Origin: Planctomycetia bacterium
GTDB taxonomy: Bacteria > Planctomycetota > Phycisphaerae > UBA1845 > UTPLA1
Direction of reading: 5' to 3'
DNA: 64,000 bases
NCBI GenBank assembly: GCA_015200345.1
Contig: CP054187.1
Coordinates: 2,154,470-2,218,469 of the forward strand
The notes under the pieces are model-generated. The model had not been told where the DNA came from. It did not search any database and worked only from the letters and a program-made list of their open reading frames with translations. This document shows, piece by piece, positions 50,525 to 63,285 of the stretch. Each line of letters opens with the position of its first letter. The first letter of the stretch is position 1. The position numbers and the translations under genes were made by a program.

Positions 50525-51715
50525 CTAAAACGCCGCGTGGCCTGTCAGTTCCCGGCCGACGACCAGTTCGTGGATCGTCTCGGTGCCTTCGTAGGTAATC
50601 ACCGACTCGAGGTTCAGCATGTGGCGGATCGGGCTGCACTCGATGCTGATGCCGCCGGCGCCGAGGATGTCGCGGGCGTCGCGGGCGATGTCCAGCGCCA
50701 TGCGCACGTTGTTCCACTTGGCCATGCTCACCTGGCTGTGGTGCATCGTGCCGGCGTCTTTCAAGCGCCCCAGTTGCAGGGACAGCAATTGCGCCGTCGT
50801 GATGCGCCGGCTCATGTCCGCCAGCCGCCGCTGAATCGTCTGCGTGTGCGCGATCGGCCGCCCGAAGACGACGCGGATCTTCGCGAACTCCAGCGCCTCT
50901 TTGAAGCACGCGATGGCGGCTCCGATCGCCCCCCAGGTGATGCCGTATCGCGCCTGGGTCAGGCAGCCCAGCGGCCCCTTCAACCCCACGACGTTCGGCA
51001 GCATCTGCGAGGCGGGCACGCGCACGTTGTCGAAAAACAATTCGCTGGTGACGCTGGCGCGCAGGGAGAACTTCCGCAAAATGTCGCGTGCGGTGTAGCC
51101 CGGCATGCCCTTCTCGACGATGAACCCGCGCACGCCCTCGTCCGTCATCGCCCAGACGATGGCGATGTCGGCGATGGTGCCGTTGGTGATCCACATCTTG
51201 GCCCCGTTGATGACCCAGTCGCCGCCCTTTTTCACGGCGCGGGTCTTCATGGTGCCGGGATCGCTGCCGCCGTCCGGCTCGGTGAGGCCGAAACAGCCGA
51301 TGCACTCGCCCTTGGCCATGCGAGGTAAATACTTTTGTCTTTGTTCCTCGCTGCCGTAGGCGAGGATGGGGTACATGCACAGGCTGCCCTGCACGCTGAC
51401 GAAGCTGCGCACGCCGCTGTCGCCGCGCTCCAGCTCCTGGCAGACAAGGCCGTAGCAGACGTTGTTCAGGCCGGCGCAATCATAGCCCTCGATGTTGCAG
51501 CCGAGCAGGCCCATCGAAGCGATCTCGGGAACGAGTTCCTTTGGAAAACGGTGGTCCTCAAACGCCTGCGGAATGACCGGCAGCACGCGCTCGTCCACAA
51601 ACCGCGCGACCGCGTCCTGAATGGCGAGCTCATCGTCAGAGAGCAGGCTGCGGATGTTGTAGTAGTCGTACGGATTGGGCGTTTCAACGGCGGTAGTCAT
51701 GCTCGGTGCGGCCAT
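50525..51715 (-). CDS. Acyl-CoA dehydrogenase (glutaryl-CoA dehydrogenase-like)
   Basis: An FAD enzyme oxidising an acyl-CoA to the enoyl-CoA. The 396-residue protein starts at ATG 51715 behind GAGGAA. Hallmarks are 'IGCFGLTEPDGGSDPG', 'WVINGAKMWITNGTIADIAI', 'GLKGPLGCLTQARYGITWG' and the C-terminal catalytic 'YEGTETIHELVVGRELTG', with Glu as the base. The 'YEGT' context and 'TQARYGI.WG' favour the glutaryl-CoA group, though substrate range is not certain. Electron transfer to an ETF is expected; etfB is 24 kb away. Confidence 0.9.
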   Translation of the reverse strand: MAAPSMTTAVETPNPYDYYNIRSLLSDDELAIQDAVARFVDERVLPVIPQAFEDHRFPKELVPEIASMGLLGCNIEGYDCAGLNNVCYGLVCQELERGDSGVRSFVSVQGSLCMYPILAYGSEEQRQKYLPRMAKGECIGCFGLTEPDGGSDPGTMKTRAVKKGGDWVINGAKMWITNGTIADIAIVWAMTDEGVRGFIVEKGMPGYTARDILRKFSLRASVTSELFFDNVRVPASQMLPNVVGLKGPLGCLTQARYGITWGAIGAAIACFKEALEFAKIRVVFGRPIAHTQTIQRRLADMSRRITTAQLLSLQLGRLKDAGTMHHSQVSMAKWNNVRMALDIARDARDILGAGGISIECSPIRHMLNLESVITYEGTETIHELVVGRELTGHAAF

Positions 51716-51930
51716 GTGCGGTTCCTCGTGCTTCGGGTCCGTGTTGCGGGTCCAGGGTGTCGAACCGGGGATTGTAACGCAGCGGCGAGCCTCAATGAAG
51801 CACGGCGATGACATGACTGCATGTGATTATGGGCTGTTTTGGTCGGGCCAACTTGACGCCGGGCCTTCGCTGGGCCGATGAACAGGGTGAACGAATCCCG
51901 ATTCAATAAATCGAGCCGCCGGGGTGCGAC

Positions 51931-52473
51931 ATGGCGCAATCATTATCCACACACAGGAGCGATGCGCGGCCGCTGGTGCTGGTCACGCTCTGCGGCGGCG
52001 GCTGGCATCGCGAGACCCAGCGCATGCTGGAACAGTTCCCGGCGGACCAATTTCGCTACGCGTATGTTTACGGCCATTGCCGCGGTGTCCACGGCGCGGC
52101 CCGGCTGGAGATGCCGCACGACGGCCCTCGCTACCCGATGCACTACCTCGGGCCGACGCGTGCGCAGCGGTTCGGCTGGATCGGCAACGCCGTGCGCTTC
52201 GCGCGGTCGATGATCGAGGCCGATCGACTGGTCAGGCGGCTTCGCCCGGCCGCCATCCTCGCGGTCGGCACGGCCATGGCGCTGCCCCTGTTCGTCGCCG
52301 GGCGAAGGTGCGGCGCGACCTGTGTGTTTGTCGAATCGCTGACGAGATTTCGCAATTTGTCTGCGACCGGGCGATGGGTGCGGCGGCTGCGCCTGGCGGA
52401 TCGGCTGTACGTCCAGTGGCCACGGTTGCAGCGGACGCTTCCGGGCACGACGTACGCGGGGGCGGTGCTGTGA
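51931..52473 (+). CDS. Alg14/PssD-like glycosyltransferase subunit
   Basis: This 180-residue protein is the membrane-anchoring, acceptor-binding partner of a split GT-B glycosyltransferase. It has 'VLVTLCGGGWHRETQRMLEQ' near the N-terminus, similar to the 'GsGGHt.em..l' of Alg14, then 'PAAILAVGTAMALPLFVAGR' and 'CVFVESLTRFRNLSATGR'. The stop overlaps the start of the Alg13-like gene (GTGA). The two together likely add a sugar during polysaccharide or glycolipid synthesis. Confidence 0.75.
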   Translation: MAQSLSTHRSDARPLVLVTLCGGGWHRETQRMLEQFPADQFRYAYVYGHCRGVHGAARLEMPHDGPRYPMHYLGPTRAQRFGWIGNAVRFARSMIEADRLVRRLRPAAILAVGTAMALPLFVAGRRCGATCVFVESLTRFRNLSATGRWVRRLRLADRLYVQWPRLQRTLPGTTYAGAVL

Positions 52474-53087
52474 TCCTTGTCACCGTCGGCACACAGTTTT
52501 TTGACGAGTTGATCGACGAGGTGGACCGCCTCGCCGGCGCGAGAGCCTTCGACCAATTCACCGGCGCGGGGGCGGCAACAACTCTTGCCGACACATCTCC
52601 TGCCAGCGCTGGCCCCGCTTTTCATGGGCCGAACCGGCTGAAAGCCCGCGCCGCAGAGTGCGCAAAAGCCACGCCGGTGTCGGGCCGGCTGGAAACCGGC
52701 GGCGCAGCCGTCTTTGCGCAGATCGGCCTGCAAAAGAAGCCGCCGAAACATATCGCCCACGTCGCGTTCGATCGCGAGCTGGTCAGCAAGGCACGGCGGG
52801 CCGATCTCATCATCACGCATGCCGGCACCGGCTCGCTGATGGAGTTCCTCCCGATGGGCCGGCCGCTCATCGCCGTCGCGAACCCGACCAAGGCCGACAA
52901 CCACCAGTTGGAGTTCCTGCACGCGCTGGATGATGAATACGATTTCTGCTGGATCGCCGAACCGCGCTACCTCGAATCCGCCTTGCCCCAGGCGCGCCCG
53001 CCTCGACGGCGACACCATCCCGGCAATGCCCCCGGGCCGAGCATCGGCGAAAACATCGCCGCGTTCCTAGTCGGCAGAATTGAATAG
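52470..53087 (+). CDS. Alg13/PssE-like glycosyltransferase catalytic subunit
   Basis: The 205-residue protein starts at GTG 52470, overlapping the Alg14-like stop by four bases. It begins 'ILVTVGTQFFDELIDEVDRL', the Alg13 signature, and has 'ADLIITHAGTGSLMEFLPMG' and 'PLIAVANPTKADNHQLEFLHAL', the UDP-sugar-binding half of GT28. About 50 extra residues (roughly 30-80, low similarity) interrupt the domain between 'GARAFDQF' and 'VFAQIGLQKKPPKHIAHVAF'. They are encoded by repeat-like DNA. The C-terminus is arginine/proline-rich. Confidence 0.75.
   Translation: MILVTVGTQFFDELIDEVDRLAGARAFDQFTGAGAATTLADTSPASAGPAFHGPNRLKARAAECAKATPVSGRLETGGAAVFAQIGLQKKPPKHIAHVAFDRELVSKARRADLIITHAGTGSLMEFLPMGRPLIAVANPTKADNHQLEFLHALDDEYDFCWIAEPRYLESALPQARPPRRRHHPGNAPGPSIGENIAAFLVGRIE
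52610..52712. repeat. Repeat-like in-frame insertion in the Alg13-like gene
   Basis: The stretch contains short palindromic cores such as GGCTGAAAGCC and CCGGCTGGAAACCGG and is read without a frameshift. It has a different sequence from the repeat in the E1 gene but the same style. Boundaries are approximate. Confidence 0.45.
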
Positions 53088-53099
53088 GGCCGATCTGGC

Positions 53100-53116
53100 G
53101 GCAATAATTTATTGCC
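53100..53116 (+). terminator. Weak hairpin after the Alg13-like gene
   Basis: GGCAAT pairs with ATTGCC around a five-base loop and is followed by TTTGCG. It could weakly terminate the upstream plus-strand gene. It lies beyond the tracrRNA terminator on the opposite strand. Confidence 0.35.
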
Positions 53117-53126
53117 TTTGCGCAAT

Positions 53127-53232
53127 AAAAAGGCCGCACCCTTGCGGTTGCGGCCGGTCGCCCCGTGGGGCGTGGCCTGCGAATCTTTCTTCTTGTTACG
53201 AAAAGACACGCGGGCCGAGGTCGATTACACTG
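53127..53232 (-). ncRNA. tracrRNA of the type II CRISPR-Cas system
   Basis: On the minus strand the sequence begins AGTGTAATCGACC, identical to one end of the CRISPR repeat, and continues through about 36 nt of anti-repeat that matches the repeat with a few mismatches. It then has GGCCACGCCCC/GGGGCG-type stem-loops and a final hairpin GGCCGCA...TGCGGCC (53132-53155) followed by TTTTT. Length is about 105 nt. tracrRNA pairs with each crRNA repeat and is bound by Cas9. It lies between the Alg13-like gene and cas9, antisense to cas9. A promoter with ideal spacing is directly upstream. Confidence 0.9.
53132..53155 (-). terminator. tracrRNA intrinsic terminator
   Basis: GGCCGCA (53132-53138) pairs with TGCGGCC (53149-53155). 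The minus strand continues with TTTTT (plus-strand AAAAA at 53127-53131), the expected U tract. Confidence 0.85.
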
Positions 53233-53238
53233 GTCGTA

Positions 53239-53267
53239 ATTCTGCCAAAATGCAACCGGCTTGTCAA
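53239..53267 (-). promoter_or_regulatory. tracrRNA promoter
   Basis: On the minus strand a consensus -35 TTGACA (53262-53267) and a -10 CAGAAT (53239-53244) are spaced by 17 bases. The predicted start falls at about 53232, exactly at the anti-repeat. Confidence 0.75.
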
Positions 53268-53299
53268 GTGCTTTTCAACCGCGCGAAAGGGAGATTGAT

Positions 53300-56200
53300 A
53301 TGTCTGGGTTGGTTCTGGGGCTGGATTTGGGGCCTAACTCTCTCGGCTGGGCGTTAGTTGACGAATCCGAGGGGGGGAAGGGGTTGATCGATTGCGGGGT
53401 GCGGGTGTTTCCGGAGGGTGTCGACAATTTCGACACCAAGAAAGAAACGCCGCGCAACGAGGCCCGCAGGATTGCCCGTGGCATGCGGCGGCAAATCGCT
53501 CGACGCGCTCGGCGGAAACGCCGCCTACGCGAGGCTCTCATTGCATCCGGTCTATACCCTGCCGGTCCCGGTGAGCAAAAGAAGCTCGAAGGCCTGGATC
53601 CATACGAGTTGCGCGCCCGCGCATTGGATGAACCGCTCAAGCCTTACGAGATTGGCCGCATCTTGCTGCACTTTGGACAGCGCCGAGGGTTTCTATCGAA
53701 TCGAAAGCGGGAACGCACGAACAATGAAGTCAAGGGCATGCTCGCGGAAATGAGCGCCTTACAGGCCGACATTGAAGCAACCGGCGCGCGAACGCTTGGC
53801 GAGTATCTTCACCGCAAGTCGCGCGAAATGAACCACTGCAAGCGAGTTGATAATGACCACGTTCGACGTCGCCACACCCGGCGCGACATGCTCTCTTATG
53901 AGTTCGACAGAATCTGGAAAGAACAATCTAAACATCATGCCGGCCTCTTAACGGACAAGCTGCGGTATGGCGCATCCGGCGCGGCACAAAAATTTCCGTC
54001 GTTGCCCCGCAGGCGGAAAAAGGGCCAATCATTTCTTGATGCCTTTGGCGTCGAGGGGCTGATTTTCTTTCAGCGGCCAATCTATTGGCCTCGGTCGGTA
54101 GTCGGCAAGTGTGAGTTGGAGCCAAAGCAAAAGCGGTGTGCCCGCGCGGACCGCCGAGCGCAGCGGTTTCGCCTTCTACAGGAAGTTAATAATTTGAGGT
54201 ATATCGATCCGGATACAAATCAAGAGCGGTCTCTTTCGCCGGAGCATCGCGACACGCTACTTAAAAAGTTGTCTCGGTCCAAGGAAATGGATTTCGACAA
54301 AATTCGCAAGGCGCTGGGGTTGCACGAATCGGTGCAGTTTAACCTCGAATCCGGCAAGAGAAAAAAACTTTGGGGCATGGTGACGGATTCGCTTCTGGCC
54401 GCCAAGGGCGCATACGGGCCGAAATGGCATGAACTGGCGGAGCAGACCAAGAACCGCGTCGTCGAATTGCTTGTGCTTTCGACGGATGATGACGAAACTG
54501 CCGAACGCCTGATAGAGGAGTGCGGCCTGACAAGGAGCCAGGCCGAGTCGGTGCTGGGTGTAGATCTGCCGCAGGGCTACATCCACTTGTCGGTGATGGC
54601 TCTCAACAAGCTTATTCCCCCTCTTGAACGCGGCTTGAAGCTGATGGGAAACGACGAAACGGATTCAGCGATGCACGCTGCTGGGTATATGCGCCGAGAT
54701 CAGCTCCAACGGCGAGTCTTCGACCATTTGCCAGACCCAACGAGAGCAAGGGACGCTCGCATCGGCGACATTCCAAGCCCTGTTGTTAAACGAGCAATCG
54801 TTGAATTGCGGAAGGTCGTCAACGCCATCATCCGCGAGTACGGCAAGCCCGCAGCGGTACATGTTGAATTAACGCGCCAGGTTCGACAGGGGCCAGAAGC
54901 TCGCCGTGAATACACGTCTCGTATCCGCGAAATTGAAGAAGAGCGCGCGGCGGCGGCTGACGAAATACGCAAACTCAAGATAGGGGGGGCGTCTGTAGCT
55001 GTCAATCGCGACAGCATTCTGCGTTGGCTGTTGTGGAAGCAGCAGAACCATGACTGCATCTACTGTGGCAATAAGATCAGCCAGGCACAGTTATTCGGCG
55101 GCGAGATCGACGTGGACCACATCTTGCCGTATTCACGCAGCCTCGATGACTCACAGATGAACAAGGTTGTCTGTCATCGAAATTGCAATAGCGACAAAGG
55201 CAATCAAGCGCCCTACGAATGGTTGTGCGATAAGAATCCCAAGAAATACGCCGAAGTTCTGCAACATGCTTTGTCACTGGTTCGGCGCGGGACGCTGCCC
55301 TACAAAAAATACCGCAGAATCAGCCAGAAAGATTTGATATTGGACGACTTTATCGCTCGTCAACTGACGGCGACCGGCTACATCACCAGTGCAACCGTGG
55401 AGTATCTAAAATGTTTGTTTGAAAACGAGCACGCCGTACTCGGCCTGAAGGGCGAGTTGACGGCGGAGCTGCGACACCAGTGGGGGCTTGATGACGTGCT
55501 GTCATCGCTGCCAGACAGCCCCGCCTGGCAGGAGCAGGCCGATCTGCGGTCAGGGGAAAAGAATCGCGCCGACCACCGCCACCACGCAATAGACGCGATC
55601 GTCGTCGCGCTGACAAATCGCTCTCGCCTTCAACAGCTGTCGCGCATTCGCAAGAGGGGCGGGGGAGACAGGGCTGACGAAGCCCTGCCCGCGCCGTGGG
55701 CGTCATTCCGTGATGATGTTGTTGCGAAGATCAGAGATATCAACGTGTCGCGTCGCGCCAAAAGGAAGGTGGCGGGCGCGCTGCATGACGACAACCCTTT
55801 TGGCAAGACGCAGAGGCCGGGGTACTTTGTCAAGCGCAAGCCGCTGATAGAGCTCTCACCAAGCGAAATAGACAAGATACGCGACGCCGCTATCAAGGAC
55901 ATTGTAAAGGGCGAGCTGTCTCGGGCCGGCATTATCGCTGGGCGCGGGAAGGGGGTGGATGGTGGGGCGATGAAGAAGGTCTTGGCAGAATTAACAATGC
56001 CGTCAGGCGTCCCTATTAAACGCGCTCGGCTCTTGGTGCCCAGTGAAACCATTAGACCGATCCGTGAGAAAACACCGCACGAAGTACAAGTCAATCCGAT
56101 GTCAACACATCACTTGGCGTTGTTCGAGTGGGATGAAGGCGGTAAGACAAAGCGCAAAGCTGTTTTCGTCACAATGATCGACGCCATTAAGCGGCTCAAG

Positions 56201-56491
56201 TGCCACGAGCCCATTATCCAACGCAATCCGCCCAACAATAATGCTGGTATTCCGCAAAATGCACGATTTGTGTTTTCGCTAAGCGGCGGAGAGCTTGTGT
56301 TGGTTGATGTCGGGGGTAACAAAAAGCTCCTTGTCTTTGACACCGCGGCTCAAACATCACAGCAGATGTGGTTTTATGAACATACCGACGCCCGAAAGCA
56401 CAAGAGGCTGTATAGTTTCATGCCGAATACCCTCAAGGCGCGAAAGGTGACGGTAGACCCCCTAGGTCGTATTCGCTGGGCCAACGACTGA
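53300..56491 (+). CDS. cas9: Type II-C CRISPR effector endonuclease Cas9
   Basis: The RNA-guided nuclease has 1063 residues from ATG 53300, with AAAGGGAG upstream. RuvC-I is 'LGLDLGPNSLGWAL' with Asp9. The arginine-rich bridge helix spans about 52-80. RuvC-II is 'AVHVELTRQV' with Glu523. The HNH domain (about 580-645) has His607 in 'DVDHILPYSR', plus C586/C589 and C625/C629 as a possible zinc knuckle. RuvC-III is 'RHHAIDAIVVA' with His762 and Asp765. The remaining C-terminal part (about 800-1063) is the wedge/PAM-interacting region. All catalytic residues are present, so it looks active. Size and the absence of csn2 and cas4 place it in II-C. Some stretches are AT-richer than the neighbours. 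Confidence 0.97.
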   Translation: MSGLVLGLDLGPNSLGWALVDESEGGKGLIDCGVRVFPEGVDNFDTKKETPRNEARRIARGMRRQIARRARRKRRLREALIASGLYPAGPGEQKKLEGLDPYELRARALDEPLKPYEIGRILLHFGQRRGFLSNRKRERTNNEVKGMLAEMSALQADIEATGARTLGEYLHRKSREMNHCKRVDNDHVRRRHTRRDMLSYEFDRIWKEQSKHHAGLLTDKLRYGASGAAQKFPSLPRRRKKGQSFLDAFGVEGLIFFQRPIYWPRSVVGKCELEPKQKRCARADRRAQRFRLLQEVNNLRYIDPDTNQERSLSPEHRDTLLKKLSRSKEMDFDKIRKALGLHESVQFNLESGKRKKLWGMVTDSLLAAKGAYGPKWHELAEQTKNRVVELLVLSTDDDETAERLIEECGLTRSQAESVLGVDLPQGYIHLSVMALNKLIPPLERGLKLMGNDETDSAMHAAGYMRRDQLQRRVFDHLPDPTRARDARIGDIPSPVVKRAIVELRKVVNAIIREYGKPAAVHVELTRQVRQGPEARREYTSRIREIEEERAAAADEIRKLKIGGASVAVNRDSILRWLLWKQQNHDCIYCGNKISQAQLFGGEIDVDHILPYSRSLDDSQMNKVVCHRNCNSDKGNQAPYEWLCDKNPKKYAEVLQHALSLVRRGTLPYKKYRRISQKDLILDDFIARQLTATGYITSATVEYLKCLFENEHAVLGLKGELTAELRHQWGLDDVLSSLPDSPAWQEQADLRSGEKNRADHRHHAIDAIVVALTNRSRLQQLSRIRKRGGGDRADEALPAPWASFRDDVVAKIRDINVSRRAKRKVAGALHDDNPFGKTQRPGYFVKRKPLIELSPSEIDKIRDAAIKDIVKGELSRAGIIAGRGKGVDGGAMKKVLAELTMPSGVPIKRARLLVPSETIRPIREKTPHEVQVNPMSTHHLALFEWDEGGKTKRKAVFVTMIDAIKRLKCHEPIIQRNPPNNNAGIPQNARFVFSLSGGELVLVDVGGNKKLLVFDTAAQTSQQMWFYEHTDARKHKRLYSFMPNTLKARKVTVDPLGRIRWAND

Positions 56492-56538
56492 TAAATAAAG
56501 AACCCCGCCGTCGCGACCGATCTACCACGGTCGACGGA

Positions 56539-57558
56539 ATGGGGGCCGTGATCAAGCGCACGATCGAAATCTCCCAGAACCCCGCCTACCTGGCCGTCCG
56601 CGACGGCCAACTCCTCCTCCGCGCGCAGCGCGAGAATACTGACACCCAGCCGGACCGCGACCCCGACGGGGCGGGTTCTTCCCGGCGCGGTGCCCGAGCG
56701 CAACACGATCCGGACCATCGACCCACGCCGGCCATTCCCTGCGAGGACATCGGCGTCCTGCTGGTCGATCACCCCGCCGTGACGTATTCACACAGCGCGC
56801 TCACAACACTCCTTGAGCATGATGCCGCCGTTGTACTTTGCGGGAGAAACCACCTGCCAATCGGATTGCTGCTGCCGATCGCGGAGCACTCGCAGGTCGT
56901 CTGGCGAGTGCAGGCCCAAATCAACGTGCCGAAGCCCGTCCGAAAGCGACTGTGGCAGCAAATCATCCGCGCCAAGATTCGCGCGCAAGCGGCGAACCTG
57001 TTGCCCGACACCCTCACACGTACCAAGCTGCTCGGCCTGGCGCGGAATGTCCGCTCCGGCGACCCTGACAACCTCGAAGCCCAGGCTGCTCGGGCCTATT
57101 GGCCGGCATGGCTTCAAACCATTCACGCCGAGGCGGCGGGCAGAGCCGCCGTGCCGGATTTCCGGCGCGATGCCGACGGCCCAGCACCGAACAACCTGCT
57201 CAATTATGGCTACGCCGTCCTGCGCGCGGCCGTCGCGCGGGCCTTGGTATGCGCCGGCCTGTTCCCGGCCCTGGGATTGAAGCACTCGAACCGTTCCAAC
57301 GCGTTCTGCCTGGCGGACGATCTCGTGGAGCCGCTTCGTCCCATGGTGGACGCGGCCGTGAGTGGGCTTGCGCGTCAAGGGGTGCTTGAGCTCGGCCCGG
57401 ACAGCAAGAAAGCGCTCTTGGGGCTGCTCGCATCGGACGTCGAACTAGCGGGACAAACCGGCCCGCTCATGGTCGCGCTGCATCGTTTTGCCGCATCCCT
57501 GGCGAAGTGTCTCGACGGCGACGCCGAGGAACTGGAGATTCCGGTCGCATGTACTTGA
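56539..57558 (+). CDS. cas1: CRISPR-associated integrase Cas1
   Basis: Cas1 inserts new spacers together with Cas2. The protein has 339 residues. The metal-binding triad is Glu180 ('DNLEAQAARAYW'), His249 ('GLKHSNRSNAF') and Asp260/261 ('LADDLVEPLRP'). The N-terminal beta domain has 'EDIGVLLVDHPAVTYSHSAL' and 'CGRNHLPIGLLLP'. It carries about 30 extra Arg/Asp/Pro-rich residues (about 34-63) not typical of the family. GTG 56548 is an alternative start. It is 47 bases after cas9 and overlaps cas2 by 10 bases. Confidence 0.95.
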   Translation: MGAVIKRTIEISQNPAYLAVRDGQLLLRAQRENTDTQPDRDPDGAGSSRRGARAQHDPDHRPTPAIPCEDIGVLLVDHPAVTYSHSALTTLLEHDAAVVLCGRNHLPIGLLLPIAEHSQVVWRVQAQINVPKPVRKRLWQQIIRAKIRAQAANLLPDTLTRTKLLGLARNVRSGDPDNLEAQAARAYWPAWLQTIHAEAAGRAAVPDFRRDADGPAPNNLLNYGYAVLRAAVARALVCAGLFPALGLKHSNRSNAFCLADDLVEPLRPMVDAAVSGLARQGVLELGPDSKKALLGLLASDVELAGQTGPLMVALHRFAASLAKCLDGDAEELEIPVACT

Positions 57559-57878
57559 GCGGGTATCGCTGCATGTGGGTTATCGCCATGTTTGATTTGC
57601 CGGTCGATACGAAAGCGGCGCGAAAGGCCTACGCGCAGTTTCGCAAGGCCCTGCTCAAGGACGGCTTTGCCAAAATGCAGTTTTCGGTCTATATTAGAAA
57701 TTGTGCCAGCGAGGAAAACGCCAATGTGCACATCCAGCGCGTGCAGGGGTTTCTTCCGGACGACGGTGAAGTGCGCATCCTCACCATCACTGACAAGCAA
57801 TTTGAGCGCATGCGCGTTTTCTGGGGAAAACGGCGCAAGCCCCCCGAACCGGCCCCGCAACAACTCGAACTTTTTTAG
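57549..57878 (+). CDS. cas2: CRISPR-associated protein Cas2
   Basis: The 109-residue protein starts at ATG 57549, inside the cas1 end, which indicates coupling. The ferredoxin-like fold begins 'WVIAMFDLPVDTKAARKAY' with the conserved Asp16, then 'FAKMQFSVYIRNC' and 'GEVRILTITDKQFERM'. A proline-rich tail ends in 'LELF', as in many type II Cas2 proteins. It forms the adaptation complex with Cas1. The array starts 49 bases downstream. Confidence 0.95.
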   Translation: MYLSGYRCMWVIAMFDLPVDTKAARKAYAQFRKALLKDGFAKMQFSVYIRNCASEENANVHIQRVQGFLPDDGEVRILTITDKQFERMRVFWGKRRKPPEPAPQQLELF

Positions 57879-57926
57879 ACCGGGCTGCTCGCAAGTGTCG
57901 GTCGGAAAGCCGCTTCGGAACGAGGT

Positions 57927-60337
57927 AGTGTAATCGACCCCGGCCTGCGAGCAATCCGCAACTGGGCCGGTCGATGAGCCGCCGAGCGACACAGTGTAAT
58001 CGACCCCGGCCTGCGAGCAATCCGCAACATCGCGCACGCGCCGGATGGCGTCGGCGCGAGTGTAATCGACCCCGGCCTGCGAGCAATCCGCAACTCCCTG
58101 TCGGCAGTCGAATTACATCGGTAAAGTGTAATCGACCCCGGCCTGCGAGCAATCCGCAACCGTCCTTATCCAGTTGACCGGCCACCTGTTAGTGTAATCG
58201 ACCCCGGCCTGCGAGCAATCCGCAACAATGCCCCATGTGCGCAGCCGGACGGCTGGAGTGTAATCGACCCCGGCCTGCGAGCAATCCGCAACTTAACATC
58301 AATCACCTCGCCTCGTCTTCTAGTGTAATCGACCCCGGCCTGCGAGCAATCCGCAACGCCCGCGAAGACGGAAAGGCCGACGATCCTAGTGTAATCGACC
58401 CCGGCCTGCGAGCAATCCGCAACGTTGGTTGGAACCAGCGTCTATGTTGATGAAGTGTAATCGACCCCGGCCTGCGAGCAATCCGCAACCCGTTGGTCGT
58501 CACGTTGACGCGGGTTTACAGTGTAATCGACCCCGGCCTGCGAGCAATCCGCAACTGACGGCTGCGGTTGGCCAGAAGGTGACGCAGTGTAATCGACCCC
58601 GGCCTGCGAGCAATCCGCAACCGACCGTCAGCAACGCCGCACAATCGGTCGAGTGTAATCGACCCCGGCCTGCGAGCAATCCGCAACCCTTCCTGCGCGG
58701 CCAGCGAACGCCGGTGAAGTGTAATCGACCCCGGCCTGCGAGCAATCCGCAACTGCCTGCGCGAGACAGAGATCGTCGCATGGAGTGTAATCGACCCCGG
58801 CCTGCGAGCAATCCGCAACTAATGTTGATCGGGCCGCCGGATGGCAGGAGTGTAATCGACCCCGGCCTGCGAGCAATCCGCAACAGTGGCCTTCCGGCGT
58901 GTCGGTGTCGTTCAAGTGTAATCGACCCCGGCCTGCGAGCAATCCGCAACGTCTGCCGTCAATTAGCAAACGGTCAATATAGTGTAATCGACCCCGGCCT
59001 GCGAGCAATCCGCAACTCAACGATTGCGACCAACAACAACGAGTCGAGTGTAATCGACCCCGGCCTGCGAGCAATCCGCAACCCGTTACGCTAAAATTGA
59101 CCCGTTCCGAAAAGTGTAATCGACCCCGGCCTGCGAGCAATCCGCAACTCATCGCGCATTCGCCGGGCGGCACACATTAGTGTAATCGACCCCGGCCTGC
59201 GAGCAATCCGCAACGTCGATGAACTGGTGATTCGCAACAACGCCAGTGTAATCGACCCCGGCCTGCGAGCAATCCGCAACTCAAGAACCTTATCTGCCGT
59301 CTCGTTTAAGAGTGTAATCGACCCCGGCCTGCGAGCAATCCGCAACGATACGTGCCGCACGGCCCATAGCCCGTATAGTGTAATCGACCCCGGCCTGCGA
59401 GCAATCCGCAACCGCGACGCGCATCGGCACGCCGGTATAGGCAGTGTAATCGACCCCGGCCTGCGAGCAATCCGCAACTATCGGTTCACGGGCAGGGCAG
59501 TACGAATCAGTGTAATCGACCCCGGCCTGCGAGCAATCCGCAACGCTAAAGCAAGCGATGCGGCGACTGACAAAAGTGTAATCGACCCCGGCCTGCGAGC
59601 AATCCGCAACCGAAACGACGGCACGTTGGACTATGCGGGAAGTGTAATCGACCCCGGCCTGCGAGCAATCCGCAACAGCGCGCCTTCCGGTTCGTGCTCG
59701 CTAGGCAGTGTAATCGACCCCGGCCTGCGAGCAATCCGCAACCATCAAAGCCGACGTGCCAAACTCTTGCTTAGTGTAATCGACCCCGGCCTGCGAGCAA
59801 TCCGCAACTTATTCCCCGTCCTGGCCGACAACTTGTTGAAGTGTAATCGACCCCGGCCTGCGAGCAATCCGCAACACAGCCCATGATTGGTCCAGCCCGC
59901 GTGAGAGTGTAATCGACCCCGGCCTGCGAGCAATCCGCAACACGGAATCATGGCAGCGGTTCTTGCAATCGAGTGTAATCGACCCCGGCCTGCGAGCAAT
60001 CCGCAACTGTGTCGGCTGCGCGACATCCGTCTTAGACAGTGTAATCGACCCCGACCCGCGAGCAATCCGCAACTCATCCAGGCCGCGCCTTCCTCGGTCG
60101 CGTAGTGTAATCGACCCCGACCCGCGAGCAATCCGCAACTGCCACGGAGGTGCCGGGCAGCGCGGCAAAAGTGTAATCGACCCCGACCCGCGAGCAATCC
60201 GCAACAGCACCAGCGCCGTGATGTCGCGCGTGGACAGTGTAATCGACCCCGACCCGCGAGCAATCCGCAACACGCTTGTAGAATTGCAGCGCACCGTTGC
60301 GAGTGTAATCGACCCCGACCCGCGAGCAATCCGCAAC
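57927..60337 (-). CRISPR. CRISPR array, 37 repeats of 36 bp and 36 spacers
   Basis: Direct counting gives 37 repeats beginning at 57927, 57993, 58059 and so on to 60302. Spacers are mostly 30 nt with a few of 29 or 31. On the crRNA strand (minus) the repeat starts GTTGCGGATTGCTCG and ends GGTCGATTACACT, the GTT...start typical of type II crRNA. Minus-strand transcription is inferred from this, from tracrRNA complementarity and from the AT-richer flank on the right. Repeats 33-37 (60038-60337) share two substitutions. The leftmost repeat is not degenerate. Spacers look unrelated to each other; targets are unknown. Confidence 0.97.
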
Positions 60338-60558
60338 TCAACAAACCACAGCTCTTTTTAACAATGATGCCGCCGTTGAATCGCAAACGCTGTGACCTTT
60401 TTTTGTGCGCTGCGTCCGCGAATATCATTTACCAAGCCATAAGAATCTACTTCTGTATAAGAGTGGGTTTCCCCGCGGTGCATTGTCAACACTGTGATTA
60501 ATAAAAGTAATGCTTTGGAGCGCTGTGGAGCAACTGCGTGCCACCATTTGATGGCCGC
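60338..60558 (-). promoter_or_regulatory. Probable CRISPR leader
   Basis: About 220 bases between the array and the SpoIID gene are AT-richer than the surroundings and contain runs of A/T (CTTTTTAAC, CTTTTTTTG). On the minus strand a TTGACA is present at 60484-60489. The other side of the array (57879-57926) is short and GC-rich. This makes the right side the likely leader and acquisition end. Confidence 0.6.
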
Positions 60559-61863
60559 CTAGTAAATCTTTCTGATGATCGCACCCGGGTAATACGTCGC
60601 GAGGATGGCCTTGTGATCCATCCCGCGGCGGGCTTTGGTCTCGGTGCCGTACTGGCAGAGACCCATGCCGTGGCCAAAACCCTTGCCGTCGGAGAAGATG
60701 AACCGATCGCCCTTCTTTGCAACCTGGAAGTTTGTCGATTTCAGAAGCCGCCCGCCCATCGTCAGGCGGAAATCCTCGCCGATGAGCGCGTCCTTCGCGC
60801 CGCCGGAACCGATCAGCTCCATGTGAAGGATGCGGCCGTCGGGCGTGCGGGCCTTCGGGCGCAGGTCGCTGATCGTGCCGAGCTTTTTCAGCGAGGGGTA
60901 GCGGGCGACGAGTTTCTTGGTCATGTCGGCGCGGGAGATTTCAACGGGACCCCATTTGTAATTCGGCGCGACGTAGCAATCTTCGCAGACCACGCCGCCG
61001 CGGAGCGGGCCGACGTCGGGATCGCGCGGCTTGACGTTGTTCACATGCTGCGATTGGCCGCCGCAAGCGGAAGAATAATAGGTGCAGAAAATGTCTTCCT
61101 TTGAGCCGTCGTTCCAGAGGCAGACTTCACCGCGCGTGCCGTCGACGGCGCTGATCGCGATGGCGTCCTCGCCTTTGACGCCGATGTACATCTGGCTGCC
61201 TTCGTCATCAACGACATCCCAGGGCCGGCCCGGCGGAGCGATTCGCTTTTGATAAAGCACATACGTCCGCGCGGCGACGCATTGCGCCTTGAACGATTCG
61301 GGATGGAAGTAGCGAGGAAGTTCGCCGCGCAACACACCGCGAAGATACGCTTCGACATCGACGAGGTTGATCACCGTGAGCGCCTCGCCGGTGCGAAGGA
61401 TGCGAAGTGACCCGCGATAGGTTTGCTGATTCAACACGATCGATGCGTCGCGCGCCGGCGTGATCAGCAGGTTGGTCGTATCAAACGTCTCGCCACCCAG
61501 CGCGATGCCGCCGCCGGTCGCGGGGCGCAGCGCCGCCAGGGAGAGCGGCGGATGCTCCGGCGCGAGCTGCCGGCCGGCCACGCCGTCGATCGCGGAAAAG
61601 ACCGACGTGACGGCCAGTTCAGCCGACTGGCCGGGTTTGAGTTCCAGCAGTCGGACGCGAATTTGTCGGTCGACGATGACTTCGGGCGGGGCTTCGGGGC
61701 GATGGGTGCTGGTCCATCGCTGGGTGTCGAAAAGTCCTTCACATCCGACAAAGCACAGCGTGGTGGCGGTGAGCGTCACGCCGAGAATAACAGCCGGATG
61801 ACATTTTCGAAGCGCCGAGGCGATCATCATGAGAACCCGGATGATCTGGTTTTGGGCGGACAT
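60559..61863 (-). CDS. SpoIID/LytB-domain lipoprotein
   Basis: The 434-residue protein has a hydrophobic segment ending in a lipobox 'LCFVGC' near residue 41; a shorter start at the later MMIAS is possible. The SpoIID domain is recognisable: 'RGVLRGELPRYFHPESFKAQCVAARTYVLYQ' region (conserved Glu and AR.Y), 'YYSSACGGQSQHV' and the C-terminal 'GFGHGMGLCQYGTETKARRG'. SpoIID-like proteins degrade or remodel peptidoglycan (lytic transglycosylase or its enhancer). It is upstream of the array on the same strand, so read-through into the array is conceivable. Confidence 0.85.
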   Translation of the reverse strand: MSAQNQIIRVLMMIASALRKCHPAVILGVTLTATTLCFVGCEGLFDTQRWTSTHRPEAPPEVIVDRQIRVRLLELKPGQSAELAVTSVFSAIDGVAGRQLAPEHPPLSLAALRPATGGGIALGGETFDTTNLLITPARDASIVLNQQTYRGSLRILRTGEALTVINLVDVEAYLRGVLRGELPRYFHPESFKAQCVAARTYVLYQKRIAPPGRPWDVVDDEGSQMYIGVKGEDAIAISAVDGTRGEVCLWNDGSKEDIFCTYYSSACGGQSQHVNNVKPRDPDVGPLRGGVVCEDCYVAPNYKWGPVEISRADMTKKLVARYPSLKKLGTISDLRPKARTPDGRILHMELIGSGGAKDALIGEDFRLTMGGRLLKSTNFQVAKKGDRFIFSDGKGFGHGMGLCQYGTETKARRGMDHKAILATYYPGAIIRKIY

Positions 61864-61956
61864 CGGCGGACGGCTCCGGCCGGCGCGGCTCGATGGGGTT
61901 CGCGCCTCGGCTCACAGCAAGGATAGCGCGCCGCGGAATCGGAGTCGGATCGACGA

Positions 61957-63285
61957 TCAGGCCTGCCGCAAGGACAATCCCATCTGGGCCAGGCACGCCT
62001 TGATTTCCGTCAGCGACGTCTGGCCGAAGTTTCGCGATTCGAGCAGCTCCTGCTCGCTGCGAATGATCAGCTCGCCAATGGTCGAGATGCCCAGCCGCTG
62101 GAGACACTTGCGGGAGCGCACCGACAACTCGATCGACATGACCGGGCGGCTCAAAACATCGGGGCTGACGTTGGGCGCGAGGGCCGCGAAGTCGGGCGCG
62201 GGGCGGGCGGCGCCGCCCATCGGCGAGTTCTGACCGAGGCTCAAGCCCTTTTGCGCGAGCATGGCTTTGATCTCGCGGAGGCTGGTCTCACCGAAGTTCT
62301 TGTAGGCCAGCAACTCGGCCTCGGTGATGCGCAGCAAGTCACCGAGGGTGTTGAGATTCATTTTCTTGAGGCAGTTGCGGCTGCGCACGGAGAGTTCAAA
62401 ATCGGTGATGGGGGTATCGAGCACGGCGCTGCGCTTCTCCATCGCGCGGACCTGGTGCTCGTTGATGTACATCGTGTCGGCGGCGAGAACATCGCGCAGG
62501 TATAGCCGAGCGCGCTCGTGATTGGGGTTGACGGCCAGCACCCGGCGGAGGCACTCCTCGGCGAGATCATATTCGTTGTTGTCTTCGTGAATGACCGCGA
62601 GGTTGATCAGCGCGTGCATGTGCACGAGGGGCAACCCGGTGCAGTGGATGTAATGGTTCATCGCCTCTTCGTCGTCGCCAAGCAGATCGCAGAGGTAGGC
62701 GAGATAAAAGCGCGCGTGGGCGTTGGCCGGGTCGATATCAACGGCCTTCTTGTACGACGCGGCGGCCCGCTGAAGATCGCCCTGTTCCTGGTGAATCCGG
62801 CCGCGGGCATAGTTCCACAGTGCGGAGCCGGCCTCGTGCGAGGCGTGTTGCTTCAGAGCGCGCAGGGCGTCATCGAAGTTGCCCATGTGCGCGAGGCATT
62901 CGGCACGGAGGCAGTCAATCTCCAGCCGATTCGCCCCGAGTGCCGCCGCCTTGTCGAACTCCGCGAGCGCTTCAGCGAATTGGCGCGACTCCAGATGCGC
63001 CCGGCCAGCAGCCAAACGGCGCACAACGCCTTCGGTCGCCTGGCCCAGCCACGCCAAGGCCTTGGGGGCGTCTCCCATGTAGAGGTAAGCCAAGCCGAGC
63101 TTGAGGCTCGAAGCGGCAGTGTCGCCCTCACCGCGTTCCGTCTTGTCTTCCAGATCATTGAGCAGCTCGATGAAACGGTGCAGGGTTTCGTTGGTCGAAA
63201 ACGCCGCACAGGCAAGCTGATTGAATGCGTCGGCAGTGGTAATGGGTTGTTCAAACTGGACTGCAAGGTCAACCGTGGTATCCAT
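61957..63285 (-). CDS. TPR protein with two RNA polymerase alpha-CTD-like domains
   Basis: The 442-residue protein starts at ATG 63285. The N-terminal two-thirds carry TPR repeats, e.g. 'ALWNYARGRIHQEQGDLQRA' and 'AHARFYLAYLCDLLGDDEEA'. Two C-terminal modules (about 290-350 and 383-442) match the helix-hairpin-helix of the RNA polymerase alpha subunit C-terminal domain. They read 'LSVRSRNCLKKMNLNTLGDL' with 'NFGETSLREIKAMLAQKGLS', and 'LSVRSRKCLQRLGISTIGEL' with 'NFGQTSLTEIKACLAQMGLS'. It may bind DNA or transcription factors as a decoy alpha-CTD. Such fusions are, from memory, found in planctomycetes. Divergent from dnaA. Confidence 0.8.
   Translation of the reverse strand: MDTTVDLAVQFEQPITTADAFNQLACAAFSTNETLHRFIELLNDLEDKTERGEGDTAASSLKLGLAYLYMGDAPKALAWLGQATEGVVRRLAAGRAHLESRQFAEALAEFDKAAALGANRLEIDCLRAECLAHMGNFDDALRALKQHASHEAGSALWNYARGRIHQEQGDLQRAAASYKKAVDIDPANAHARFYLAYLCDLLGDDEEAMNHYIHCTGLPLVHMHALINLAVIHEDNNEYDLAEECLRRVLAVNPNHERARLYLRDVLAADTMYINEHQVRAMEKRSAVLDTPITDFELSVRSRNCLKKMNLNTLGDLLRITEAELLAYKNFGETSLREIKAMLAQKGLSLGQNSPMGGAARPAPDFAALAPNVSPDVLSRPVMSIELSVRSRKCLQRLGISTIGELIIRSEQELLESRNFGQTSLTEIKACLAQMGLSLRQA

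What the first reader, a model, noticed from the sequence alone, without database searches (positions are those of the whole stretch)
60038..60337. Five contiguous variant repeats at the leader end, one change compensating the tracrRNA
Repeats 33-37 share two substitutions against the other 32, seen as CGGCCTGCG changed to CGACCCGCG. Against the tracrRNA, one turns an A-C mismatch into a G-C pair and the other turns a G-C pair into a G-U wobble, so pairing is kept or improved. A single mutated leader-proximal repeat copied during later acquisitions would give exactly such a block. This also supports the right side as the acquisition end.
Basis: partly seen in the sequence, partly recalled or inferred. 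Interest (0 to 1): 0.75.

Follow-up and report, generated by a model that had tools for sequence, protein, structure and literature searches.

The report
Old tail of a CRISPR array
Five repeats at the far end of this bacterium's CRISPR memory array do differ from the other 32, but comparison with about 60 related systems indicates that they are the oldest entries rather than the newest, left from before the template for new repeats changed.

Summary
The pairing claim also holds: against the tracrRNA anti-repeat (53195-53231, - strand) the variant turns an A-C mismatch into G-C and a C-G pair into U-G (predicted duplex -58.2 against -54.7 kcal/mol).

The polarity claim does not hold. This is a type II-C locus (cas9-cas1-cas2, crRNA strand opposite). 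II-C systems are reported to acquire spacers at the cas2-side end, here the left (57927). In 66 planctomycete arrays the cas2-to-repeat-1 segment has nearly constant length and conserved sequence; the far flank does not. Of 44 arrays complete at both ends, the terminal repeat is altered at the far end in 11 and at the cas2 end in none. The five are most likely the oldest repeats.

The 32 younger repeats break a repeat-tracrRNA pair kept in 60 of 64 relatives; the old five keep it. Cas9 and Cas1 have significantly different phylogenies. I favour replacement of the cas1-cas2-leader-repeat segment by recombination, leaving an old tail; mutation of the template within the lineage remains possible.

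The parts
53127..53235 (-). tracrRNA (ends approximate): anti-repeat at 53195-53231, terminator-like hairpin at about 53132-53155 followed by a T run
   Evidence: Local alignment score 39 to the repeat, at most 29 in shuffles; sequence and fold
53300..56491 (+). cas9 (1063 aa)
   Evidence: TIGR01865, E 2.7e-200; sister to L043 in the Cas9 tree
56539..57558 (+). cas1
   Evidence: TIGR03639, E 6.8e-65; groups with L108, L046, L050
57549..57878 (+). cas2
   Evidence: TIGR01573, E 1.5e-21; best match L108, 87%
57879..57926 (.). Short leader, the inferred acquisition side: 48 nt between cas2 and repeat 1
   Evidence: Nearly constant length and conserved sequence in relatives
57927..60007 (-). Repeats R1-R32, majority form; inferred younger part. 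crRNA strand is -
   Evidence: Identical repeats; crRNA A17 mismatches the tracrRNA
60038..60337 (-). Repeats R33-R37, variant form G17A T20C; inferred oldest part. crRNA strand is -
60338..60572 (.). Flank beyond the old end, without homology to G001 up to 60573
   Evidence: far flanks are not conserved among relatives

Best explanation
The array records two epochs of one type II-C system. New spacers enter next to cas2, at the left end (57927), by copying the repeat that lies there. R33-R37 at the right end are the oldest surviving units and keep the repeat form that pairs with the present tracrRNA at crRNA position 17. After they were laid down, the template repeat at the cas2 side changed at two positions, and the 32 later repeats have the new form, which carries an A-C mismatch to the tracrRNA. 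The likeliest cause of the double change without intermediates is recombination: a cas1-cas2-leader-repeat segment of another lineage replaced the middle of the locus, leaving the older tracrRNA-cas9 on one side and the older tail of the array on the other (about 0.5-0.6; mutation within the lineage about 0.35). Shown here: the block, the pairing, the asymmetry among relatives, and the Cas9/Cas1 incongruence. Inferred: the acquisition end in this organism, the age of the block, and the recombination event.
For: Polarity: papers report II-C acquisition at the crRNA-3' or cas2 side. In the 66 arrays the gap from cas2 to repeat 1 is 50-57 nt in 60 of the 65 measured; the 48 nt there have mean pairwise identity 0.375 against 0.253 at the far side; of 44 arrays complete at both ends, altered terminal repeats are 11 far, 0 near, p = 0.001. 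The two other uniform variant blocks found (L089 R39-R43 of 43, L123 R18-R21 of 21) are also at the far end. Age and fit: at crRNA position 17 repeat and tracrRNA agree in 60 of 64 other systems; the 32 majority repeats break this and the five keep it. In L123 the far block likewise fits its tracrRNA and the majority does not. Recombination: Cas9 is sister to L043 (SH-aLRT 98-99), whose repeat has the same two states as the five; Cas1 groups with L108, L046 and L050 (100/93), and L108's repeat is identical to the majority form and pairs at position 17 with its own tracrRNA. Swapped groupings are rejected, p-AU 4e-4 or lower. L089's block differs from its neighbours by 7 substitutions, which mutation of one template hardly explains.
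Against: No strain sharing spacers with the window was found, so acquisition was not observed in this lineage. The 11 to 0 count includes the window (10 to 0 without it), and the loci are not fully independent. The alignment used for position 17 favours matches. Only two positions separate the two repeat forms, and elsewhere the variant is nearer to L108-type repeats than to L043's. PMC12638026 suggests that II-C may contain subgroups with different acquisition ends. L108 is only a distant stand-in for a donor (Cas1 62.6% identical), and a single repeat of it is on the contig.
Confidence: 0.8

Rival explanations
1. Two in-lineage mutations: the cas2-side template repeat mutated at both positions between acquisitions, or an intermediate repeat was lost by deletion, and the 32 later repeats copied it. 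Same polarity as the best explanation, but no recombination.
For: The two forms differ at only two positions; L123 shows a uniform far block with a single substitution and no sign of module exchange. Arrays in the set show internal duplications, so units can also be lost.
Against: No intermediate repeat among 37. The new form happens to equal L108's repeat, and the Cas9 and Cas1 trees disagree.
Confidence: 0.35
2. One reading: the leader is at the right, a leader-proximal repeat mutated recently, and five acquisitions copied it.
For: A uniform terminal block is what template copying gives at either end; the transcript of the array starts on the right.
Against: Reported II-C polarity; conserved segment at the cas2 side and not at the far side; altered terminal repeats 11 far, 0 near; the five fit the tracrRNA as relatives do, the 32 do not.
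Confidence: 0.07
3. Gene conversion or unequal crossing over spread the variant among neighbouring repeats without any link to acquisition order.
For: Repeat arrays recombine; duplicated spacer runs occur in several relatives.
Against: All spacers within the block are unique and spacing is regular; conversion would have to change five repeats and leave every spacer untouched; blocks in L089 and L123 also sit at the far end.
Confidence: 0.04

Closest known systems
Type II-C CRISPR-Cas as in Riemerella anatipestifer and Campylobacter jejuni (PMC6008519, PMC4283603, PMC12080349)
   Same: cas9-cas1-cas2, tracrRNA, crRNA strand opposite to cas, 30-nt spacers; altered oldest repeat at the crRNA-5' end is common
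   Different: Here a uniform five-repeat block is changed, and it pairs better with the tracrRNA than the consensus repeat; PMC12080349 reports the reverse trend for oldest repeats
Leader-distal terminal repeat variants, e.g. Streptococcus agalactiae CRISPR1 (PMC4466440)
   Same: Repeat polymorphism concentrated at the leader-distal end and inherited as a lineage mark
   Different: That is one degenerate terminal repeat in a II-A system; here five intact repeats share two substitutions
Array of L089 (G142): 38 + 5 repeats that differ by 7 substitutions
   Same: Two uniform blocks, with the minority block of five at the cas2-distal end
   Different: Seven differences instead of two; no cas9 or tracrRNA was found on that contig, so the fit could not be tested

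Membership tests
Type II-C CRISPR-Cas | Cas9 effector | tested here: met
   TIGR01865, E 2.7e-200
Type II-C CRISPR-Cas | Only cas1 and cas2 besides cas9; no csn2 or cas4 in the operon | tested here: met
   cas9, cas1, cas2 and then the array; no room for a further gene between them
Type II-C CRISPR-Cas | tracrRNA with an anti-repeat to the array | tested here: met
   Anti-repeat at 53195-53231 (-), score 39 against at most 29 in shuffles
Type II-C CRISPR-Cas | crRNA strand opposite to the cas genes | tested here: met
   Anti-repeat pairs with the - strand repeat, 5'-GTTGCGG...TACACT-3'
Type II-C CRISPR-Cas | Acquisition at the crRNA-3', cas2-proximal end | tested here: inconclusive
   Strong comparative support, but acquisition itself was not observed and no strain pair was available
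Type II-C CRISPR-Cas | Promoter within each repeat | tested here: inconclusive
   62 of 66 repeats end in TACACT or TACAAT on the crRNA strand, but a strict sigma-70 scan finds no site
   Far flanks are not conserved among 44 complete arrays; the conserved segment lies at the cas2 side

The most novel reading that the evidence does not exclude
The locus is a mosaic left by a module exchange. The cas1-cas2-leader-repeat segment came from a lineage like L108 (G015), while tracrRNA-cas9 and the last five repeats stem from the earlier resident. The old tail then gives the order of events and the number of surviving acquisitions since (about 32), with the young repeats still mismatched to the tracrRNA.
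Probability: 0.5. Interest if true: 0.55.

Novelty: new member of a known kind. Interest (0 to 1): 0.38.

Why it matters
It corrects the reading direction of this array: the left spacers, not the right ones, are probably the recent infections. More widely, uniform variant blocks at the cas2-distal end could serve as marks of past changes of repeat template in II-C systems. Read together with the tracrRNA and with separate Cas9 and Cas1 trees, they could show whether such changes come from mutation or from exchange of the adaptation module.

Tried and rejected
Strain comparison: the same-genus genome G001 has no Cas9 match; its flanking genes are present, with other DNA between them. No window spacer is shared with any other array of the set. 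Protospacers: no match of the array in phage records, and only two weak matches (E 0.7) in plasmids, so evidence from PAM and targets is missing. A second array as source of the variant: none in the genome with the pattern used. Right flank as leader: far flanks are not conserved, and homology to G001 resumes only at 60573, which decides nothing by itself. Phylogeny of the repeat states alone as a guide to the ancestral form: dropped, because relatives by Cas9 and by Cas1 give opposite answers at + position 20. Escape from phage solitary repeats as the reason for the change: dropped, because the majority form pairs more weakly with the tracrRNA than the phage repeat does. Rfam on 51000-62000: no relevant match. 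Repeat-borne sigma-70 promoters: the strict scan found none.

Full report
What is there. The window holds a type II CRISPR-Cas locus on the + strand: cas9 (53300-56491), cas1 (56539-57558), cas2 (57549-57878), then an array. A tracrRNA anti-repeat lies at 53195-53231 on the - strand, upstream of cas9. With no csn2 or cas4 in the operon and the crRNA strand opposite to the cas genes, it fits subtype II-C. The array has 37 repeats of 36 nt at 57927-60337 with spacers of 29-31 nt. R1-R32 are identical; R33-R37 share G17A and T20C and nothing else varies.

Pairing. In crRNA orientation the two changes are A17G and C20U. Against the anti-repeat the majority form has an A-C mismatch at 17; the variant has G-C there and a U-G wobble at 20. 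Predicted duplex energies are -54.7 (majority), -58.2 (variant), -60.9 (G17 C20, the form of a phage solitary repeat) and -52.0 kcal/mol (A17 U20).

Which end is new. A terminal block does not show polarity. [quoted passage not shown] The last of these also suggests that II-C may contain subgroups with different acquisition ends. I therefore tested relatives. From genomes of the same class and phylum I fetched loci with Cas9 or type II Cas1 and extracted 66 arrays, the window included. The distance from cas2 to repeat 1 is 50-57 nt in 60 of 65. Among 44 arrays complete at both ends, the 48 nt on the cas2 side have mean pairwise identity 0.375 with a conserved CGCAA...TTaCG pattern; the far side has 0.253 and no pattern. 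The terminal repeat is altered at the far end in 11 arrays (10 without the window) and at the cas2 end in none (p = 0.001). Of 19 arrays with variants, 16 have them mostly in the far half.

Why the block exists. Template copying at the cas2 side explains it: the five oldest repeats predate a change of the template, and the next 32 have the new form. Two other arrays show the same pattern at the same end: L123 (R18-R21 of 21, one substitution) and L089 (R39-R43 of 43, seven substitutions). In L123 the far block also fits its tracrRNA better than the majority does. In L089 seven differences at one clean junction are hard to explain except by joining of two arrays.

Mutation or recombination. At crRNA position 17 repeat and tracrRNA agree in 60 of 64 other systems, A on both sides in 44 and G in 16; no permutation of 20,000 reaches this. 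The window's majority repeats break the rule and the five obey it. The Cas9 tree puts the window with L043 (98-99), whose repeat shows the same two states as the block, including the U-G wobble. The Cas1 tree puts it with L108, L046 and L050 (100/93), and the one repeat of L108 on its contig is identical to the majority form and pairs at position 17 with its own tracrRNA. Forcing the window's Cas1 with L043 or L042, or its Cas9 with L046/L050 or L108, is rejected (p-AU 4e-4 or lower). One event would account for all of this: a foreign cas1-cas2-leader-repeat segment recombined into the locus, with one crossover between cas9 and cas1 and the other inside a repeat. This is an inference from two repeat positions and two trees. 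The donor is not identified, L108 is distant, and at other positions the variant repeat resembles L108-type repeats more than L043's. I put recombination at 0.5-0.6 and mutation within the lineage at about 0.35. PMC12080349 finds that oldest repeats in II-C usually pair worse with the tracrRNA; here they pair better, which an exchange would explain.

Limits. No strain with shared spacers was available, no protospacer was found, and acquisition was not observed. The same-genus genome G001 has no Cas9 match and different DNA between the flanking genes, so presence of the locus at this site varies within the genus. Array finding and tracrRNA alignment were done with my own scripts, which favour regular arrays and matching alignments.

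Verdict. Observation confirmed; interpretation right on pairing and copying, most likely wrong on polarity and on the sense of the compensation. It is an ordinary II-C system with an informative old tail.

Noticed in passing
L138:2735-2770 (-), L144:2467-2502 (-), L145:8840-8875 (+), L146:1659-1694 (+): Single full-length repeats of this repeat family, without any second copy, in IMG/VR phage contigs (L145 and L146 share the same context). They resemble the solitary repeat units described as RNA anti-CRISPR candidates (PMC10651486); function not tested.
   Followed up: partly
window 57879-57926 and the cas2-to-repeat-1 segments of relatives: Conserved inverted-repeat-like pattern CGCAA ... TTaCG, a near-perfect hairpin in several loci (e.g. 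L114, L134, L135, L137); perhaps an integration signal or a two-way terminator.
   Followed up: partly
L125:927-962, L127:1722-1752, L106:1076-1109, L096:1402-1436 (in cas orientation): Repeat-like sequences upstream of cas9 on the cas strand, besides an anti-repeat; possible crRNA-like regulators or decayed repeats.
   Followed up: no
L109, L132, L115, L089 arrays: Duplicated runs of spacers, mostly in the cas2-distal half, as would be expected of older parts.
   Followed up: no
Cas9 and Cas1 trees of the whole set: Cas9 of one long-form clade (L108, L125, L057, L095, L122, L128 and others) pairs with Cas1 from scattered clades, so exchange of Cas9 and adaptation genes looks frequent in these bacteria.
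   Followed up: partly
G000:C1:1354110-1354736 (outside the window): A second, weaker Cas1-like match inside a 637-aa frame elsewhere in the genome, perhaps part of another CRISPR type.
   Followed up: no
window 52560-52708: About 150 nt in a region otherwise collinear with G001, where G001 has about 20 nt.
   Followed up: no
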